A stretch of DNA of 39,025 nucleotides from an uncultured Bacteroidales bacterium (GTDB taxonomy: Bacteria > Bacteroidota > Bacteroidia > Bacteroidales > UBA932). Below the pieces are notes generated by a model. It was not told where the DNA came from. It saw only the letters and a list, made by a program, of their open reading frames with translations, and did not search any database. This document shows positions 7,206 to 17,810 of the stretch, piece by piece. The stretch's first letter is position 1; every line of letters begins with the position of its first letter. The translations under genes and the position numbers were made by a program. The DNA is taken from the NCBI GenBank assembly GCA_905235995.1, contig CAJONI010000003.1, positions 1-39,025 of the forward strand, in the 5' to 3' direction.

Positions 7206-7254
7206 GAAACCTGATATTTACTACGGTTGGCCTATGCAAACAGGCACTCGACCA

Positions 7255-7350
7255 GGGGTCTGCTCCGGAATAAGCCCTCATGAATGCCTGCCAGAAATTG
7301 AGGGCCGTACTCTTGTCCATATGATAGAGTTCGTGTTCCGGCTCACGATC
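7255..7350 (-). pseudogene. Fragment of an APH-like kinase (C-terminal part)
   Basis: The translation reads DREPEHELYHMDKSTALNFW then QAFMRAYSG. This matches the C-terminal motif of the two intact kinases here (DLTHMTREQMVSFWQEFAKAYTG at 7599-8453 and DIAHMTGEQMARFWNSFALAYNG at 16953-17810). About 30 residues survive. Before it the frame runs into unrelated sequence from the PCMD fragment, and after AYSG the similarity is lost. It is a relic of a third family member, next to an intact copy. Confidence 0.65.
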
Positions 7351-7574
7351 TTCGCGGCCGCTTTGCCAGGTCCGGGTACAGCCAGGTGTTCGTATTCAGG
7401 CATGGTGGTATTAATCCCCAATACCTTCATGCCGCGGTTGGCGCTATCCCATACACGCTGTTCTTCACTTGCTCCTTTGGGAAAAGGATTCCAGGCTGAA
7501 CCCTGCCTGGACCATTCGTCCAGGCTCATATTGTACAGCTGCTGTGCCTGGGTCGATTGACACAGACATAACAC
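7345..7574 (-). pseudogene. Fragment of a PCMD-type surface protein
   Basis: The translation contains QAQQLYNMSLDEWSRQGSAW, then NPFPKGASEEQRVWDSANRG and TTMPEYEHLAVPGPGKAAAK ending at IVSR. This is the start of the PCMD (putative carbohydrate metabolism) domain found in secreted Bacteroidota proteins. The signal peptide is almost gone, because a TGA lies right before the first in-frame GTG. After IVSR the reading switches into the kinase fragment. Only about 65 of the expected several hundred residues remain. Confidence 0.55.
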
Positions 7575-7598: not shown

Positions 7599-8453
7599 TC
7601 AGCCCAACAACGTATCCATCCGGCCCCGGCAGAAAGCAAGGAACTGCGGATTCTCATTTGGATGGAAGAAGTATGTGCGCACCACATCCAGAGCGGCGTA
7701 GGGACGCATTCTCTGCTCCAGGGCCGAAACATCGGCCTGTCCGGTATAGGCCTTGGCAAATTCCTGCCAGAAGGAAACCATCTGTTCCCGGGTCATATGG
7801 GTCAGGTCCTGTACCGCAGGGATGACGCTGTCTTCCATCATCATCTTGTACAGATGGGCCAGGTCTATCACCGGGTCTCCCACGCAGAGCCAGCCCAGGT
7901 CTATCCAGTATGGCTTGTCATGCGACAGGATCAGGTTTCCCGGCTGGAAGTCTCCGTGCACGACGGTGGCCGTATCGGCCATTTCCTCCACCAGGGAAGC
8001 CAGGCGGCTTCTCTGGGACTCTGTCACAAACGGCGCATAGGCCACGGCCTCCCGCAGGAGAGATTTGAGGGAAGGGACATAGCGGCTCACGGAGAGCGGA
8101 TGCGCGTGCAGTTCGTGGCCATGCCGGGCCATCAGGGCGGCATATTCGGGGATACGCTCCGGGGCATCGGCACAAAGGCGGGACAAGGATATCTTGTCAT
8201 CTATCCTTTCGGAGATATAGCCGTGCTCCTGCCCGTTCCTTACTATCTCATATACCCGGGGCACGGGCAGACCGGCCTCCAACGCCGCCTGAGAGGCATG
8301 GAATTCCTGTTCAACCTTTTCGGCTGATGCCAGGGTGCCGTGCACCAGCTTCAGCAGTTTCCCCGGATGGGCATCCGAGATGAAGGCCTGCCCGTTGTAC
8401 CCTTCGCCAACTTGCGTCCAGGCCGACAGGTCTATTTGCGGATAATCTTGCAT
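7599..8453 (-). CDS. APH-fold small-molecule kinase (TIGR02172-like phosphotransferase)
   Basis: A 284-residue protein of the aminoglycoside-phosphotransferase / choline-kinase fold. The Brenner-type catalytic loop is VVHGDFQPGNLIL near residue 165, with Asp and Asn in place. The metal-binding segment is WIDLGWLCVGDPVIDLAHL near residue 187. The N-lobe holds GEGYNGQAFISD as glycine-rich loop and LLKLV as ATP-binding lysine strand. These proteins transfer phosphate from ATP to a small hydroxyl or amine substrate; the substrate is unknown. The gene starts 18 nt after the SDR stop, so it is probably the fourth gene of the steroid-type operon. A paralogue is at 16953-17810 and a fragment at 7255-7350. 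A resistance role is not supported by anything here. Confidence 0.82.
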   Translation of the reverse strand: MQDYPQIDLSAWTQVGEGYNGQAFISDAHPGKLLKLVHGTLASAEKVEQEFHASQAALEAGLPVPRVYEIVRNGQEHGYISERIDDKISLSRLCADAPERIPEYAALMARHGHELHAHPLSVSRYVPSLKSLLREAVAYAPFVTESQRSRLASLVEEMADTATVVHGDFQPGNLILSHDKPYWIDLGWLCVGDPVIDLAHLYKMMMEDSVIPAVQDLTHMTREQMVSFWQEFAKAYTGQADVSALEQRMRPYAALDVVRTYFFHPNENPQFLAFCRGRMDTLLG

Positions 8454-8471
8454 TGGAAAATAGTTTTATCT

Positions 8472-9284
8472 TTACACATTGATCAGCGTTTGAGTCTTCT
8501 TCCAGATCGTTTCGTCCAGCGAAGGGTCGATATACCGGGACGGAATATCCCTGCTCTGCCTTCCCACATAATAGCGGTTGTGCGTTTCTTCCGCAAGGGC
8601 GCGCAGGGCCGGACTGACGCCGGCCTGCGGCGACTTGCACAGCGGCTTGAACAACACGTCGGCCAGCGGATCGTACCAGTGGCCCAGGTCGATCATGTCG
8701 GATGCGACGACGTCCGGATCGGCCAGGTTGACATGCAGGTCCGGATACCGCCGCGCCAGCTCCATGGAAAACGACAGCAGCGCGCGCTTGGACCGGGCAT
8801 AGGTGCCGAGCTGGCTGAATTCTTTTTCGCCCGGCTGCAGGGCTCCCTCGTCCAGCGAAACGAAGCGGCAGGTAAGCGACACCATATTCACGATATGAGC
8901 GTCCTTTGGCAGTTTCGGCAGCAGGAGCAGCGTCAGCAGCCATGGGCCGAAGTAATTGACAGAGAATGTGTTCTCAAATCCGTCTTCCGTCAGGCGGAAG
9001 CCTTTCGATATGACGCCGGCGTTGTTGAAGAGCGCGGTGACCGAGCCGGGTTCGACGCTTTCAGCGAAAGCCCGCACTGAGGCCATGGAGGCCAGGTCCA
9101 ACGGCCGTACCTCGATGTCGGCGCCGGGAACGCGATGGAGGATGTCCGCACGCACTGCCGCGGCCTTGTCAAGATTACGGCAGGCCATCAGCACAGGAAT
9201 CCCCTGGCGGGCCAGGGCCTCTGTCGCTGCGGACCCCATGCTTCCCGTAGCGCCGGTCACGATGATCCTTCCCTTCATTTCCAT
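8472..9284 (-). CDS. Short-chain dehydrogenase/reductase (candidate hydroxysteroid dehydrogenase)
   Basis: A 270-residue classical SDR. The Rossmann glycine motif is TGATGSMG (residues about 9-16), with NNAGVISKGF near 90. The catalytic Ser is in NMVSLTCR and the YxxxK motif is YARSK near residue 168. It resembles retinol-dehydrogenase-like SDRs. CRNLDKA after beta-2 has an Arg typical of NADP preference. The ATG at 9284 has a GGAGG six bases upstream; the next ATG (9278) overlaps the upstream stop as ATGA. Placed directly after 5-alpha-reductase and OYE-type genes, a 3-hydroxysteroid (3-alpha or 3-beta) dehydrogenase is the best inference. The direction and position on a steroid cannot be read from sequence. 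Confidence 0.85.
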   Translation of the reverse strand: MEMKGRIIVTGATGSMGSAATEALARQGIPVLMACRNLDKAAAVRADILHRVPGADIEVRPLDLASMASVRAFAESVEPGSVTALFNNAGVISKGFRLTEDGFENTFSVNYFGPWLLTLLLLPKLPKDAHIVNMVSLTCRFVSLDEGALQPGEKEFSQLGTYARSKRALLSFSMELARRYPDLHVNLADPDVVASDMIDLGHWYDPLADVLFKPLCKSPQAGVSPALRALAEETHNRYYVGRQSRDIPSRYIDPSLDETIWKKTQTLINV

Positions 9285-10510
9285 CGTTCCTCCGCCGCTT
9301 CCACCTCCCGGCGCAGCCGCCCGGGCAGCTCGGGCACGCAGCGGTTGCATTTCATTTCAAGGGTAAACATCCGCCCGATACAGTAGTTCGAATGTCCGCA
9401 CGGGCTCCGGTCGACTGCTCCGCTTTGGAGCTTGTTGACGAAATCGGTGTCGCGGATCAGCGCCCGGGCCATCTGCAGGCCATCGAAGCCCGCGGCGAGC
9501 ACTTCTTCCATCTTCTGCCGGGAAACCATGCCGCCCACGTAGATCAGGGGCAGCTTGACCGCGGCGCGGAACTTCAGCGCATCCTCCAGGAAATAGGCTT
9601 CCCGGTATGGGACGGTCGGAATGATCCTCCTTCCGGCCAGCAAAAGCAATGGCTTGAACCACAAGTATTTGAAAAATGGAACATAGTGGGCCATCGTGCG
9701 GAGCGGCATGGCGCCGCGCATGACTTCCATCGGCGCCCTGCTCACAAAACCAGCTGAAAGCACAATCGCGTGCACTCCCAGCCGCTCCAGCTCATGTGCC
9801 ACCTCAAGGCACTCGTCCTCCTGCATGCCTCCGCGGAAACCATCGTGCATGTTCATTTTCACGAGTACGCCAATGTCGTTGCCCGCCGCTTCCATGACAC
9901 GCCGCATCACGCGCCGCATCAGCCGCATCCGGTTTTCCAGCGGACCGCCGTACTCATCGCGGCGGTGGTTGGTATAAGGCGAAAGGAACTGGCTGATAAG
10001 GTAGCCGTGCCCTGCATGGATCTCCACGCAGTCGAAACCCGCTTCCCTGGCCAGTTCCACGGCATGTCCGAAATCTTCCACCAGCGCATCAATCTCAGGA
10101 ACCTTGAGTGCACGCACGAAGGTCGGCGAGTACAGGTTGAAGCCGCCCGAAGCGCCGACGGGCATACAGCCGCAGGTGGAGCGGTGCGTCATATTGCCGC
10201 AGTGGCCCAGCTGGATGGAGCATTTTGCACCGGCGGCATGCACGGCATCGGTAATCCGCTTCAGCTCGGGGACAATCTCCTCCCTCATCCAGAGCTGCCC
10301 TTCGAACGAAAGGCCGCTCCGGTTCACTGACGCGTAGGCCAGCGTGGTCATCCCCACCCCGCCACGGGCTACCGCCACATGGTAGTCGTACAGGTCCTGA
10401 GAGGGTCTGTTGCCATACGCCATGTTCTCGAAGGCGGCCGAGCGGATGATACGGTTCCGCAGGGTCACGGGGCCGATGTTGAAGGGAGTGAATATCGGGG
10501 ATTCCATCAT
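9275..10510 (-). CDS. Old-yellow-enzyme family NADH:flavin oxidoreductase (candidate steroid reductase)
   Basis: A 411-residue FMN-dependent TIM barrel. It starts FTPFNIGPVTLRNRIIRSA. The active-site region EIHAGHGYLISQFLSPYTNH is followed by RRDEYGGPLENRMRL, typical of the 2,4-dienoyl-CoA reductase/BaiCD branch. The phosphate-binding end is YVGGMVSRQKMEEVL and then DGLQMARALI. A Cys cluster SPCGHSNYC...KCNRC lies at the C-terminus, where related enzymes bind a 4Fe-4S cluster. It lacks the extra C-terminal NAD(P)H domain of full DCR/BaiCD proteins. OYE members of this branch reduce delta4 or delta1 bonds of 3-oxosteroids, including 5-beta-reductases of gut bacteria. It starts one base after the 5-alpha-reductase stop and overlaps the SDR gene. 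Confidence 0.88.
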   Translation of the reverse strand: MMESPIFTPFNIGPVTLRNRIIRSAAFENMAYGNRPSQDLYDYHVAVARGGVGMTTLAYASVNRSGLSFEGQLWMREEIVPELKRITDAVHAAGAKCSIQLGHCGNMTHRSTCGCMPVGASGGFNLYSPTFVRALKVPEIDALVEDFGHAVELAREAGFDCVEIHAGHGYLISQFLSPYTNHRRDEYGGPLENRMRLMRRVMRRVMEAAGNDIGVLVKMNMHDGFRGGMQEDECLEVAHELERLGVHAIVLSAGFVSRAPMEVMRGAMPLRTMAHYVPFFKYLWFKPLLLLAGRRIIPTVPYREAYFLEDALKFRAAVKLPLIYVGGMVSRQKMEEVLAAGFDGLQMARALIRDTDFVNKLQSGAVDRSPCGHSNYCIGRMFTLEMKCNRCVPELPGRLRREVEAAEERWK

Positions 10511-10511
10511 A

Positions 10512-11282
10512 TCAATAGATGAAGGGAATCATGCACTTGGTGTGCGCGGTATCGAGTTCTTCGGGGAATTCGCGCTGGTAGAGCTCATGGATGCGTGCGG
10601 CGCGCGGCGCCAGGTTGGCGAAGGTCCAGAGCGCGAAGACAGCACCCGCCCACGACCATGTGAGGATGGCAAAGCCCACCCATTCCATGAACTCCCCGAA
10701 ATAATTGGCGCTGGTCACATAGCGGAACATCCCGCCCCGGGGCAGGTAGTGCGACGTGTCGCCGGGCTGCCGCAGGTGCCGGATGATACTGTCGGACTGG
10801 ATGTTGATAAACATGCCGGCGGCGAAGACCATTGTTCCGCACAGGAACGGCGCACTTGTGAGCCATGACAGTGGATACCGGTCCGCCGGGGAAACGTAGA
10901 ATATCCAGCCGCCCTGCATCAGGGCGTTCAGCGTATTGAACACCATGCCCATCAGCACGATGGAGAGAGGCATACGGCTGTGTCCGCGCAACTGCAGAGG
11001 GAAAATGAACGAACGGTGGAAATAGTGGATCTCGAACAGGAGCAGGAAGACCAGCCGGACCACGTCGCCAAGCCGGTCGGAGAACCACCAGAGCAGCAGC
11101 ATCGCCACGAATACCGGCGCCTCCATCAGGAACCAGCCCATGTGGTTGTCGAGCGAAGGACCCCATTTTTCCGTATAGAACTTCCCGTATCCGGCATTCA
11201 CGCGGTACAGCGCGATGCACACTGCCACCGCGATGACGGCCATTACCGCCAGGAAGATATTGAATGTATGCGGAGATAACAT
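10512..11282 (-). CDS. Steroid 5-alpha-reductase homologue (3-oxo-5-alpha-steroid 4-dehydrogenase)
   Basis: A 256-residue integral membrane protein, the length of human SRD5A enzymes, with several hydrophobic helices. Alignment by eye with SRD5A2 is clear over most of the length. FLMEAPVF (Glu54) matches the catalytic Glu57 and EIHYFHRSF (Tyr87) matches Tyr91. Later INIQSDSIIRHLRQPG and LPRGGMFRYVTSANYFGEFM then EWVGFAILTWS match the NADPH-binding C-terminal half, and the end KCMIPFIY matches the conserved terminus. The family reduces the delta4 bond of 3-oxosteroids to the 5-alpha product with NADPH. It is the first gene of a four-gene leftward operon. The start at 11282 follows a promoter candidate at 11307-11337. 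Confidence 0.92.
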   Translation of the reverse strand: MLSPHTFNIFLAVMAVIAVAVCIALYRVNAGYGKFYTEKWGPSLDNHMGWFLMEAPVFVAMLLLWWFSDRLGDVVRLVFLLLFEIHYFHRSFIFPLQLRGHSRMPLSIVLMGMVFNTLNALMQGGWIFYVSPADRYPLSWLTSAPFLCGTMVFAAGMFINIQSDSIIRHLRQPGDTSHYLPRGGMFRYVTSANYFGEFMEWVGFAILTWSWAGAVFALWTFANLAPRAARIHELYQREFPEELDTAHTKCMIPFIY

Positions 11283-11306
11283 CCCACCTTTATATCTATC
11301 GTCCTG

Positions 11307-11337
11307 CGAAGTTACCGAAATAATCCCAAATGACCAA
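11307..11337 (-). promoter_or_regulatory. Promoter candidate of the steroid-type operon
   Basis: On the minus strand TTG (complement of 11335-11337), a 20-bp spacer, then TAACTTCG (complement of 11307-11314). The latter has one mismatch to TAnnTTTG. It lies about 25 bp before the start of the 5-alpha-reductase gene. Confidence 0.4.
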
Positions 11338-11386
11338 TAGGCCAGGCGCCGGATTCCTGCGGCTCCGTGTATTTCAATTTTTTATA

Positions 11387-11394
11387 TATCTTTG
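11387..11394 (+). promoter_or_regulatory. -7 box of the secreted hydrolase gene
   Basis: TATCTTTG at 11387-11394 fits TAnnTTTG perfectly and lies 23 bp before the ATG at 11418. No TTG is found at the expected -33 distance, so it may need an activator. Confidence 0.5.
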
Positions 11395-11417
11395 TAAATC
11401 ACCTAATTTTAAGATCC

Positions 11418-12467
11418 ATGAAAGCTTTATTACCACTCATGACATTGTGTCTGCTGCTAGTAAGCTCGCATGCGACCGGCCAGGAGAACAACTCCGGTTT
11501 CGCCACGCAAACCGTGGACCGGAAGGTCGAGTCGCTGCTGCTGATGGAACGACTGGACGACATCGCATATGTGGACGTTGTACGTCTTGCAGGGCCCGCG
11601 CCGGCATACCAGAAACAGACGGGTATCGCTTTCAACGACTCACTGCTCGACAACCAGCTGAAATTCCAGGCCTATGTATTCATCCCGAAGGCTGTGAAGC
11701 AGAACAGGAAGTATCCGCTGCTCGTGTTTCCGCACGGCGGCGTACACAGCAACTTCTCCTCGGGCTCCGTCCATCCCTTGCGGGAAATGGTGGCGCAGGG
11801 CTATATAGTCATCGCGCCGGACTACCGCGGCAGCACCGGGTACGGACGCAGTTTCTACGAGAACATCGACTACGGAGGCCTGGAGAACGAAGATGTGATG
11901 GCGGCTCGCGATTACATGGTGGAGAGCTATGACATCGTAGACCCGGAGCGCGTGGGCATCATCGGCTGGAGCCACGGCGGCATGATCACGCTGATGAACA
12001 TCCTGCGCTACCCGGAGAAGTTCGCCTGCGGCTATGCCGGCGTGCCCGTGAGCGACGTGGGCTACCGGCTAAGCTACCAGCATCCGGACTATTCCAAGAA
12101 TTTCACGGTGGAGTATCACATTGGGGCTACGCCGGAAGAGAAGCCGGAGGAATATGCCCGCCGCTCCCCTGTCACCTACGCCAGACAACTGACGCGGCCG
12201 CTGCGCATCGTCACCTGCGCGAACGACGACGACGTGAGCGTCACGGAGGTTCAGCGGATGATCGACTCCCTCTCCTACCATCACCGTGACTTCGAGTACA
12301 AGGTCTTCCCGAAGATGCCCGGCGCCCATTCATTCGAGCGCATCGACACGATGGAAGCCTGCGGGATCCGCTTCGAGACATACGCCTTCCTGGCCCGCTA
12401 TCTCAAGCCGCCCAAGCCCTTCCGCAACCTGAAGGACCTGCGCAAGGCCAGTTATCTGTATCATTGA
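11418..12467 (+). CDS. Secreted S9-like (prolyl-oligopeptidase family) alpha/beta hydrolase
   Basis: A 349-residue exported hydrolase. The signal peptide is MKALLPLMTLCLLLVSSHAT, with cleavage probably at TGQ. The oxyanion/strand region is YPLLVFPHGGVHSNF, followed by APDYRGSTGYGRSFYENIDY, typical of S9 peptidases. The nucleophile elbow is GWSHGG with Ser near residue 179. The Asp is likely in CANDDDVSV and the His in GAHSFERID. The usual N-terminal beta-propeller is absent, so it is the catalytic domain alone and may be an esterase or a small peptidase. The start was set at 11418 because an upstream in-frame ATG (11367) precedes the -7 box and would spoil the signal peptide. It is divergent from the steroid-type operon; a joint role such as releasing a substrate outside the cell is speculation. 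Confidence 0.82.
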   Translation: MKALLPLMTLCLLLVSSHATGQENNSGFATQTVDRKVESLLLMERLDDIAYVDVVRLAGPAPAYQKQTGIAFNDSLLDNQLKFQAYVFIPKAVKQNRKYPLLVFPHGGVHSNFSSGSVHPLREMVAQGYIVIAPDYRGSTGYGRSFYENIDYGGLENEDVMAARDYMVESYDIVDPERVGIIGWSHGGMITLMNILRYPEKFACGYAGVPVSDVGYRLSYQHPDYSKNFTVEYHIGATPEEKPEEYARRSPVTYARQLTRPLRIVTCANDDDVSVTEVQRMIDSLSYHHRDFEYKVFPKMPGAHSFERIDTMEACGIRFETYAFLARYLKPPKPFRNLKDLRKASYLYH

Positions 12468-16952: not shown

Positions 16953-17810
16953 CTATTTCGTCAGCATCTTGGCCAGCTGGCCGAGGAAGAAGCGCTCCGA
17001 GAAGGAAAGGTGCTGCACGAAGCCCAGCAGGAGCACGTCCAGGCCGGCGAAGCGCCTGCACTGTGCCGTGAATCCTTCGAGGCCTTCCGGGCCGTTGTAT
17101 GCCAGGGCGAAGCTGTTCCAGAACCGCGCCATCTGCTCCCCGGTCATGTGGGCGATGTCCTGCACGCGCTGCTTCTTCGCGAAGATATTGCAGAAGAGAT
17201 AGAAGTGCCCGAGGTCGAACATCGGGAGTCCGTGCGTGGCGCGGCCCAGGTCGATCCAGTAGGGTTTGTCGTCGGCAAAGATGATATTGCTGAAGGTGAA
17301 GTCGCCGTGCAGGAGGGTGGGCGCGTCTTCCAGCCCTTCCACGAAGGAACGCACGCGCTTGAGCGTCTTGCCGCCTATCATTTCGGTCTTGTCGAGGGCT
17401 TCCAGCATGAGGGCCTTCATGGACGGAATCCATTCGCAGCCTGTGGCCGGGGTGCCGTGCATCTGCTTCGCCAGTCCGGCCATCCTTGCCGCGTAACTGT
17501 CGATGGCTTCGGGATTCTCCCCGCTCATCTTCGACAGGGACTTCTTCCCTTCTATCAGTTCGCTCTTGATGCCGTAGTCTTCTCCCACGCGCACGATCTC
17601 ATGCATCTTCGGGGTCGGAATCCCCAGGTCGCAGATGGCCTTCGAGGTATTGAATTCCTTGGAAACGGCTTCAAGGGTGCCGTCGGAAAGGGTGTGGTTG
17701 CTCGTCTTGAGCAGTATCCCCGGTTCTTCGGGATTGACGTAAGTGGAACCGTTCCCGCCTTCGCCCACCTTGGTCCAGGCGCTGATGTCCACTGTTTTGT
17801 ATCCTTCCAT
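16953..17810 (-). CDS. APH-fold small-molecule kinase, second paralogue
   Basis: A 285-residue kinase of the same family as the one at 7599-8453. The glycine-rich loop is GEGGNGSTYVN and the ATP lysine is in ILLKTSN. The catalytic loop is TLLHGDFTFSNIIF near residue 170, and the metal-binding segment WIDLGRATHGLPMFDLGHFY near 193. The C-terminal motif is AHMTGEQMARFWNSFALAYN. Its substrate is unknown. It is monocistronic: its own TATTTTTG box (complement of 17839-17846) lies about 29 bp before the ATG, giving a leader of roughly 20 nt. Downstream, between it and the receptor gene, are hairpins (CGACC-AAGC-GGTCG at about 16856-16869) but no clear leftward terminator. Confidence 0.82.
   Translation of the reverse strand: MEGYKTVDISAWTKVGEGGNGSTYVNPEEPGILLKTSNHTLSDGTLEAVSKEFNTSKAICDLGIPTPKMHEIVRVGEDYGIKSELIEGKKSLSKMSGENPEAIDSYAARMAGLAKQMHGTPATGCEWIPSMKALMLEALDKTEMIGGKTLKRVRSFVEGLEDAPTLLHGDFTFSNIIFADDKPYWIDLGRATHGLPMFDLGHFYLFCNIFAKKQRVQDIAHMTGEQMARFWNSFALAYNGPEGLEGFTAQCRRFAGLDVLLLGFVQHLSFSERFFLGQLAKMLTK

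What the first reader, a model, noticed from the sequence alone, without database searches (positions are those of the whole stretch)
7599..11282. Compact operon of 5-alpha-reductase, OYE reductase, SDR and a kinase: candidate bile-acid or steroid reduction locus
Seen: four leftward genes with gaps of 1, -10 and 18 bases. The first is a true SRD5A homologue with Glu54 and Tyr87 matching the human catalytic pair; the second is a DCR/BaiCD-branch OYE; the third a classical SDR. Known: gut Odoribacteraceae and relatives make isoallolithocholic-type products with 5-alpha-reductase, an OYE-type 5-beta-reductase and a 3-beta-hydroxysteroid dehydrogenase encoded near one another. Inferred: this organism reduces 3-oxo-delta4 bile acids or steroid hormones. 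The fourth gene, a kinase, is not part of the described pathways.
Basis: partly seen in the sequence, partly recalled or inferred. Interest (0 to 1): 0.78.

Follow-up and report, generated by a model that had tools for sequence, protein, structure and literature searches.

The report
Steroid-reduction gene trio beside unrelated kinase
A gut-type bacterium carries three adjacent genes that together probably reshape the first ring of steroid molecules, a gene set already known from human gut bacteria, while the fourth gene beside them is most likely an unrelated neighbour moved there by DNA rearrangement.

Summary
The first three (SRD5A-type 5-alpha-reductase, Old Yellow Enzyme, SDR) are 86.6% identical in DNA to a cluster in a related species, are under purifying selection, and belong to a Bacteroidales module. 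The fullest form has 5AR, OYE, a classical SDR ("SDR1") and a second SDR ("SDR2"). The window keeps SDR2 but lacks SDR1, which the 12 other same-genus loci with 5AR-OYE-SDR2 have. The kinase is probably not part of the module: its closest homologue lies about 7 kb from the cluster in one relative, another is in a genome with no detected 5AR, and none was found in 80 named loci. It stands directly before a fragment of the gene that follows SDR2 in that relative. A 5AR / flavin reductase / 3-beta-HSDH cluster acting on bile acids is published for gut Bacteroidota, so this is a new member of a known kind. Two points add interest. The OYE has no FAD/NAD half but a conserved Cys-His-Cys-Cys site. 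Relatives include ruminant forestomach species, where bile acids are normally absent, so the natural substrate may be another steroid. The locus type is a candidate for the allo- and 3-beta-epimerisation reported when bile acids are added to rumen.

The parts
10512..11282 (-). [quoted passage not shown]
   Evidence: PF02544 149.9 bits; 7c83 2e-49, human SRD5A2 6e-43; E54, Y87 invariant 108/108; 88-90% identical in the three nearest same-genus loci L042-L044
9275..10510 (-). Old Yellow Enzyme family reductase (candidate 5BR), 411 aa, without FAD/NAD half, with C371-x-H373-x3-C377-x10-C388
   Evidence: PF00724; 88-sequence alignment: C371, C377 88/88, C388 87/88 (one gap), H373 83/88, H165/H168/Y170 88/88; barrel model, mean pLDDT 85.8
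8472..9284 (-). SDR2, candidate hydroxysteroid dehydrogenase, LPOR/PRK06197-like SDR, 270 aa; start at 9284 overlaps OYE by 10 bases
   Evidence: PF00106; N110, S136, Y162, K166 invariant in 25/25; best structural matches LPOR and 3rd5
11307..11337 (-). Promoter-like TTG-N20-TAACTTCG (Bacteroidetes -33/-7 pattern, recalled) 55 to 25 bases before the 5AR ATG
   Evidence: 11 matches to the pattern in both strands of the 39-kb window
7599..8453 (-). APH-type small-molecule kinase (TIGR02172-like); adjacent but NOT considered part of the module
   Evidence: 205 bits, cut-off 228; 89% and 88% identical homologues elsewhere in G024 and G027; collinearity with the G024 cluster breaks at 8465-8472
7334..7551 (-). 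Fragment of the PCMD-domain gene that directly follows SDR2 in the relative G024; in the window the kinase lies between SDR2 and this fragment
   Evidence: 84.9% over 218 bases to L192:18704-18921; PF13201 in L042:8645-9403
7227..7333 (-). Fragments: 7257-7333 matches the broken TIGR02172 kinase stretch of G027, 7227-7296 matches a stretch of G024
   Evidence: L193:13988-14064; L192:12729-12802; broken G027 copy

Best explanation
A three-gene steroid A-ring redox operon, perhaps read from a promoter just before the 5AR. (1) The OYE interconverts a 5-beta 3-oxo steroid and the 3-oxo-delta4 steroid. (2) The membrane 5AR reduces the delta4 bond to the 5-alpha side with NADPH, giving the flat (allo) 3-oxo steroid. 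(3) SDR2 reduces the 3-oxo group, probably to the 3-beta alcohol. The net result is reduction of 3-oxo-delta4 steroids and/or A/B-ring and C3 epimerisation. Shown: gene identities, catalytic residues, conservation of the module, purifying selection. Inferred from the published Bacteroidota bile-acid pathway: reaction order, the OYE as 5BR, cofactors, the stereochemistry of SDR2. Unknown: the natural substrate. The kinase is a neighbour placed there by a rearrangement and does something else.
For: Family and active-site evidence. Module in 80 named loci, any place in the fetched stretch: 38 have 5AR+OYE+SDR1+SDR2, 23 lack SDR2, 2 lack SDR1, 8 have 5AR+OYE, 9 have 5AR only; some stretches are cut by contig ends. 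In 295 Bacteroidales genomes 24 have a strong SDR2 match (230 bits or more, my cut), and in 18 of these it lies within 3 kb of the OYE (read by eye; at least three of the 18 also gave rows to the query profile). Collinearity of 8465-11283 with G024 at 86.6% and dN/dS of 0.085-0.151. Published: 5AR clustered with a predicted 3-beta-HSDH and a flavin oxidoreductase; disruption of 5AR in P. merdae prevents alloLCA derivatives (PMC10382948 passages). Kinase dissociation.
Against: No activity, transcript or substrate evidence. PF02544 also rings in 3 of 14 control genomes not known here as steroid users, so the domain alone does not prove a steroid substrate. The window lacks SDR1, and which SDR is the characterised 3-beta-HSDH was not established. 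In 6 of the 24 genomes with a strong SDR2 it is not near the OYE. The OYE is not BaiCD by NCBIfam's cut-off; taking Y170 as the match of Y166 of 1ps9, its G169 and Q174 fit neither the bile-acid nor the hormone clade residues of Arp et al. (PMC12238238 section 9). SDR2's nearest structural family is LPOR, a C=C reductase, so another reaction is possible. The window is a contig of an 88%-complete draft assembly; the junctions at 8465-8472 and 11283 could in principle be assembly errors.
Confidence: 0.6

Rival explanations
1. Four-gene unit: the kinase phosphorylates the 3-hydroxyl formed by the SDR, giving a steroid phosphate, as insect ecdysteroid kinases do (recalled analogy).
For: Gap of only 18 bases and same strand; HGDFQPGN and WIDLG motifs of APH-type kinases present; dN/dS 0.107.
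Against: 1 of 13 same-genus 5AR-OYE-SDR2 loci (the window) has it adjacent; none in the fetched stretches of 80 named loci; 88% identical homologue in G027, where no 5AR was found; G024 homologue about 7 kb from its cluster, between a GDSL lipase and a glycosidase gene; multi-copy paralogous family, 4 copies in this genome; in the window the kinase stands where the start of the PCMD gene would be, before a fragment of it.
Confidence: 0.04
2. The module does not act on bile acids or hormones in this organism but on another 3-oxo-delta4 lipid: diet-derived sterol enones or triterpenoids in herbivore guts, or a lipid of the bacterium's own.
Against: Published activity of related Bacteroidota 5AR on 3-oxo-delta4-LCA; 10 of the 25 titles are hindgut or faeces; forestomach species may also live in the hindgut; the source of the window itself is unknown.
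Confidence: 0.3
3. Decaying remnant: losing SDR1 (and the AraC-type regulator seen in one relative) at the 5AR start, and gaining a foreign gene behind SDR2, means the operon is no longer used.
For: Collinearity with G024 stops at 11283, one base before the 5AR start codon, and SDR1 is not found in the own genome (best match 33% identity, best-scoring 32%).
Against: All three frames intact with dN/dS well below 1; catalytic residues kept; promoter-like site before the 5AR; forms without SDR1 in the fetched stretch also occur in L093 and L116.
Confidence: 0.06

Closest known systems
Bacteroidota indirect allo-bile-acid pathway: 5AR, 5BR and 3-beta-HSDH cluster of Parabacteroides merdae and relatives (as told in PMC10382948, passages)
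   Same: Same three protein types, adjacent: SRD5A-type 5AR, BaiCD/BaiH-like flavin oxidoreductase, SDR
BaiCD / 2,4-dienoyl-CoA reductase (DCR) type Fe-S OYE
   Same: OYE barrel; C371 and C377 align with cysteines of the DCR cysteine cluster
   Different: 411 aa instead of 642 (BaiCD model) or 671 (1ps9), no FAD/NAD(P)H domain; H373 stands against the second DCR cysteine; YqjM-like H165/H168 pair (recalled)
BaiP/BaiJ 5-alpha-reductases of Firmicutes (PMC9645264, passages)
   Same: Same predicted reaction on 3-oxo-delta4 bile acids
   Different: Stated there to differ from the membrane-associated Bacteroidetes 5-alpha-reductases; the window has the SRD5A type
Clostridium innocuum 5-beta-reductase ci2350 (PMC12238238, sections 4 and 9)
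   Same: Delta4-3-ketosteroid 5-beta-reductase related to 1PS9 and BaiCD
   Different: Different residues at the active-site positions discussed there
TIGR02172 APH-type kinases
   Same: Window kinase matches over the whole model (1-226)
   Different: 205 bits, below the 228-bit family cut-off

Membership tests
SRD5A steroid 5-alpha-reductase family | Steroid_dh domain PF02544 above cut-off | tested here: met
   149.9 bits, cut-off 22.6
SRD5A steroid 5-alpha-reductase family | Catalytic Glu/Tyr pair of human SRD5A2 (pair recalled) | tested here: met
   E54 and Y87 aligned, 108/108 invariant
SRD5A steroid 5-alpha-reductase family | 5-alpha reduction of a 3-oxo-delta4 steroid | not testable with these tools
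   needs an enzyme assay
BaiCD | NCBIfam NF041087 equivalog cut-off | tested here: not met
   187.4 against 825 bits, best stretch 4-257 of 642
BaiCD / DCR-type Fe-S OYE | C-terminal FAD/NAD(P)H domain | tested here: not met
   protein ends at 411 aa; PF00724 is the only Pfam match at E 0.001
BaiCD / DCR-type Fe-S OYE | Four-Cys [4Fe-4S] motif after the barrel | tested here: inconclusive
   three conserved Cys plus one mostly conserved His; one-residue gap against DCR; region modelled with low confidence
Bacteroidota 5AR / 5BR / 3-beta-HSDH cluster | 5AR adjacent to an NADH:flavin oxidoreductase and an SDR | tested here: met
   conserved in relatives
Bacteroidota 5AR / 5BR / 3-beta-HSDH cluster | Orthology of OYE and SDR with the characterised P. 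merdae / Odoribacter proteins | not tested
   no characterised sequence was obtained; Sanguibacteroides L143 has 5AR-OYE-SDR1-SDR2 with 62%, 60% and 39% identity for 5AR, OYE and SDR2
Hydroxysteroid dehydrogenase (SDR) | Cofactor motif and N-S-Y-K catalytic residues | tested here: met
   TGATGSMG in the sequence; N110, S136, Y162, K166 invariant in 25/25
Hydroxysteroid dehydrogenase (SDR) | Closest relationship to characterised HSDHs | tested here: inconclusive
   nearest solved relatives are 3rd5 (uncharacterised) and LPOR; human 17-beta-HSD1 at rank 27
TIGR02172 | Score above family cut-off | tested here: not met
   205.1 against 228.2 bits

The most novel reading that the evidence does not exclude
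The Bacteroidales OYE is a new two-cofactor subclass (FMN barrel plus a three-Cys-one-His metal or Fe-S site, no NAD(P)H domain) that takes its electrons from another protein and can run in the oxidising direction. With 5AR and an LPOR-like SDR it forms a ring-epimerising module used by forestomach bacteria on non-bile steroids. It would be the enzyme set behind the allo- and 3-beta-bile acids seen when bile acids are added to rumen.
Probability: 0.18. Interest if true: 0.65.

Novelty: new member of a known kind. Interest (0 to 1): 0.37.

Why it matters
IsoalloLCA, the 5-alpha 3-beta product of the published pathway, is reported to inhibit Gram-positive pathogens (PMC10382948 passage) and to promote regulatory T cells (PMC13008668 passage); the published enzymes come from human-gut genera. 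Finding the same module, in reduced form, in a small-genome Bacteroidales genus that includes forestomach species gives a concrete genetic candidate for a rumen reaction for which the passages I saw name no enzyme (alloCA by 5-alpha-epimerisation, 3-beta epimers; PMC11193847 section 20 and a passage of section 24). It also raises the question of what steroid these bacteria meet where bile is absent. The conserved Cys/His site of the OYE is a testable biochemical oddity. Showing that the kinase is probably not part of the pathway removes a false lead.

Tried and rejected
Steroid kinase: rejected on synteny. PDB matches of the kinase are weak (best E 0.001) and give no substrate. Literature on ecdysteroid kinases was seen as a search listing only.

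SDR1 elsewhere in the own genome: six generic SDR matches of 23-33% identity, none close; the genome is 88% complete, so absence is not proof. G028, cut by a contig end inside its OYE, also shows no SDR1 in the 5.8 kb before its 5AR (L041); it was left out of the 13 because its SDR2 cannot be seen.

Bile-salt hydrolase in the own genome: one partial match of 64 bits to PF02275. This family also rings in 4 of 14 control genomes, so it was not used.

Structure of the OYE: the barrel is good, but blocks of the Cys/His region have pLDDT 55-59, so the metal-site geometry could not be judged. Foldseek's best matches mix Fe-S OYEs (6qkg, 1ps9; nature recalled) and plain OYEs (8pun, YqjM). The profile search ranks YqjM first, the single sequence ranks DCR first: branch unresolved.

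The original Nature paper on centenarian bile acids is not held; reviews were used.

SDR1 or SDR2 as the published 3-beta-HSDH: undecided. None of 13 loci with Alistipes in the title shows an SDR2 (several are cut short), and a review table lists A. onderdonkii for 5-alpha-reduction, with O. laneus, Odoribacteraceae, P. distasonis and P. merdae for 3-beta-HSDH (PMC12692668, passage). This hints that SDR2 is the 3-beta enzyme, but A. onderdonkii itself was not examined.

Site tallies were not used: that script put records without an organ name into its hindgut group. The organ counts in this report were made by eye on the titles.
Full report
WHAT IS THERE. Four minus-strand genes: 5AR 10512-11282 (256 aa), OYE 9275-10510 (411 aa), SDR 8472-9284 (270 aa) and kinase 7599-8453 (284 aa). 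Gaps of 1, -10 and 18 bases hold, with the SDR start at 9284. The window is contig C3 (39,025 bases) of a 1.96-Mb, 78-contig, 88%-complete draft genome whose relatives in the tool's kinship groups are Bacteroidales.

THE 5AR. PF02544 149.9 bits; best solved relatives are 7c83 (E 2e-49) and human SRD5A2 7bw1 (E 6e-43). Glu54 and Tyr87 align with the human pair and are invariant in 108 of 108 sequences: the window, 27 from unnamed relatives' stretches and 80 from named loci; proteins under 200 aa or 200 bits were left out, and at least five named loci (L070, L103, L126, L138, L140) are the same contigs as unnamed ones, so some are counted twice (contig lengths). It is the only PF02544 match in its genome. 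The family also rings in 3 of 14 control genomes, so the domain alone does not prove a steroid substrate.

THE OYE. PF00724. NCBIfam ranks mycofactocin OYE-2 (212 bits), BaiCD (187) and NamA (152) as nearest, all far below their cut-offs. It lacks the FAD/NAD(P)H half of BaiCD and DCR. In 88 aligned sequences (window plus matches of 400 bits or more covering positions 15 to 360; same double counting), H165, H168 and Y170 are invariant, as in YqjM-type enzymes (recalled), and behind the barrel stand C371 (88/88), H373 (83/88, otherwise Gln), C377 (88/88) and C388 (87/88, one gap). In the DCR alignment C371, H373 and C377 fall on three of its cysteines, with a one-residue gap (that these bind Fe-S is recalled). 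So one ligand may be His, or the site may hold another metal: inference. The barrel is modelled well (mean pLDDT 85.8), this region poorly (55-59).

THE SDR. Catalytic N110, S136, Y162 and K166 are invariant in 25 of 25. Its nearest families are PRK06197/PRK05854, and by structure protochlorophyllide reductases and 3rd5 (model pLDDT 91.9). I call it SDR2 because many relatives have another, classical SDR (SDR1) beside it. Two profile HMMs separate the families cleanly.

THE MODULE. Named carriers include Heminiphilus faecis (L070), Barnesiella (L101, L126), Sanguibacteroides (L143) and, without SDR2, Alistipes (L128, L130) and Millionella (L147). In 295 Bacteroidales genomes the OYE is in 49 (E 1e-100 or better). 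Of 24 strong SDR2 matches (230 bits or more) 18 lie within 3 kb of the OYE and 6 do not; in 7 of the 18, the window included, SDR2 follows the OYE within 100 bases, so the direct OYE-SDR2 order is not peculiar to the window (read by eye).

IN THE SAME GENUS. Of 37 genomes (G000-G036), 22 have a strong 5AR match (E below 1e-30) and G023 a cut one. 13 carry 5AR-OYE-SDR2; 12 of these 13 also have SDR1 within 2 kb of the cluster, and the window is the exception. Seven (L031, L034-L039) have 5AR and OYE with neither SDR family in the fetched stretch; in the five whose genes I listed a 247-251-aa ORF precedes the 5AR, an acyl-ACP thioesterase in the one case checked, L031. G021 has 5AR-OYE-SDR1. G028 is cut inside its OYE and shows no SDR1 before its 5AR.

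REARRANGEMENT. Window 8465-11283 matches G024 over 2820 columns at 86.6%, ending one base before the 5AR start codon; in G024 an AraC-type regulator and SDR1 lie before it. Window 7334-7551 matches the PCMD gene that follows SDR2 directly in G024. Between them the window has the kinase, whose best match in G024 (87.6% DNA, 89% protein) lies about 7 kb from that cluster, and whose next best (88%, G027) is in a genome where no 5AR was found (89% complete). No relative of this kinase was found in the fetched stretches of the 80 named loci. Of 33 stretches from unnamed relatives one other has one, L062, which was fetched for a weak, below-cut-off PF02544 match and not for a 5AR. TIGR02172 kinases are multi-copy in the genus: 35 of 61 searched genomes have a match at E 0.001 (21 over the cut-off), 4 in this genome. 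So the kinase is a recent neighbour by rearrangement (or, less likely, misassembly), not part of a conserved pathway. A promoter-like TTG-N20-TAACTTCG starts 55 bases before the 5AR ATG (pattern recalled), so the trio may have its own start.

SELECTION. dN/dS against G024: 5AR 0.119, OYE 0.085, SDR2 0.151; kinase 0.107.

FUNCTION. A review of the centenarian study tells that Bacteroidota strains convert 3-oxo-delta4-LCA to isoalloLCA, that disrupting 5AR in P. merdae prevented alloLCA derivatives, and that the 5AR is clustered with a predicted 3-beta-HSDH and a BaiCD/BaiH-like oxidoreductase (PMC10382948, passages). 5AR annotation in most chicken-caecum Bacteroidetes isolates was noted earlier (PMC6069880, passages). 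The window trio has this content. The mechanism proposed (OYE: 5-beta/delta4 interconversion; 5AR: 5-alpha reduction; SDR2: C3 reduction) is inferred from it.

SUBSTRATE. Of the 80 named loci, 25 titles name an organ or faeces: 11 rumen, reticulum or omasum, 3 abomasum, 1 duodenum, 10 hindgut or faeces (by eye); 10 of the 11 forestomach loci carry both SDRs. The source of the window itself is unknown. Bile acids are stated not to be normally found in the rumen (PMC11193847 Introduction). Yet when bile acids were added, alloCA, 3-beta-CA and isoHDCA were among the new ones (section 20), with alloCA put down to 5-alpha-epimerisation (section 24 passage). The terms 5AR, 5alpha-reductase and 5beta-reductase gave no match in that paper's main text. 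The locus type is therefore a candidate for that chemistry, and its everyday substrate may be another steroid. Both are inference. I saw no paper on such a locus in rumen Bacteroidales in the listings of searches; these cover open-licence papers and show only the top rows.

VERDICT. Observation confirmed; interpretation right in kind for three genes, not supported in treating four as one locus; substrate open. A new member of a known kind.

Noticed in passing
L156:92-2319 (same-genus genome G015): A TIGR02172 kinase fused behind an HD domain (PF13328, 71 bits) directly follows an ORF with a weak RelA/SpoT match (26.4 bits, cut-off 27). Several other kinases of the family in the genus lie in open frames of about 470-520 aa.
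   Followed up: partly
L031:4947-7709 and L034-L039: Another 5AR-OYE arrangement in the genus without SDR1 or SDR2; L031 has an acyl-ACP thioesterase just before the 5AR, and L034 has a 207-aa ORF without a Pfam match between 5AR and OYE.
   Followed up: partly
window 16953-17810: A second APH-type kinase, 41% identical to the first, beside an NAD-dependent epimerase gene.
   Followed up: partly
L072: Record titled Pseudoflavonifractor carries a 5AR-OYE-SDR1-SDR2 module with 72% identity of the 5AR to Heminiphilus: a possibly mislabelled MAG, or a transfer.
   Followed up: no
L192:14100-15050 (G024): AraC-type regulator directly before SDR1-5AR-OYE-SDR2, not in the window: possibly the substrate sensor of the operon.
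   Followed up: no
window 11367-12467: Divergent S9-type peptidase/hydrolase ORF whose first listed start lies 84 bases from the 5AR start.
   Followed up: no
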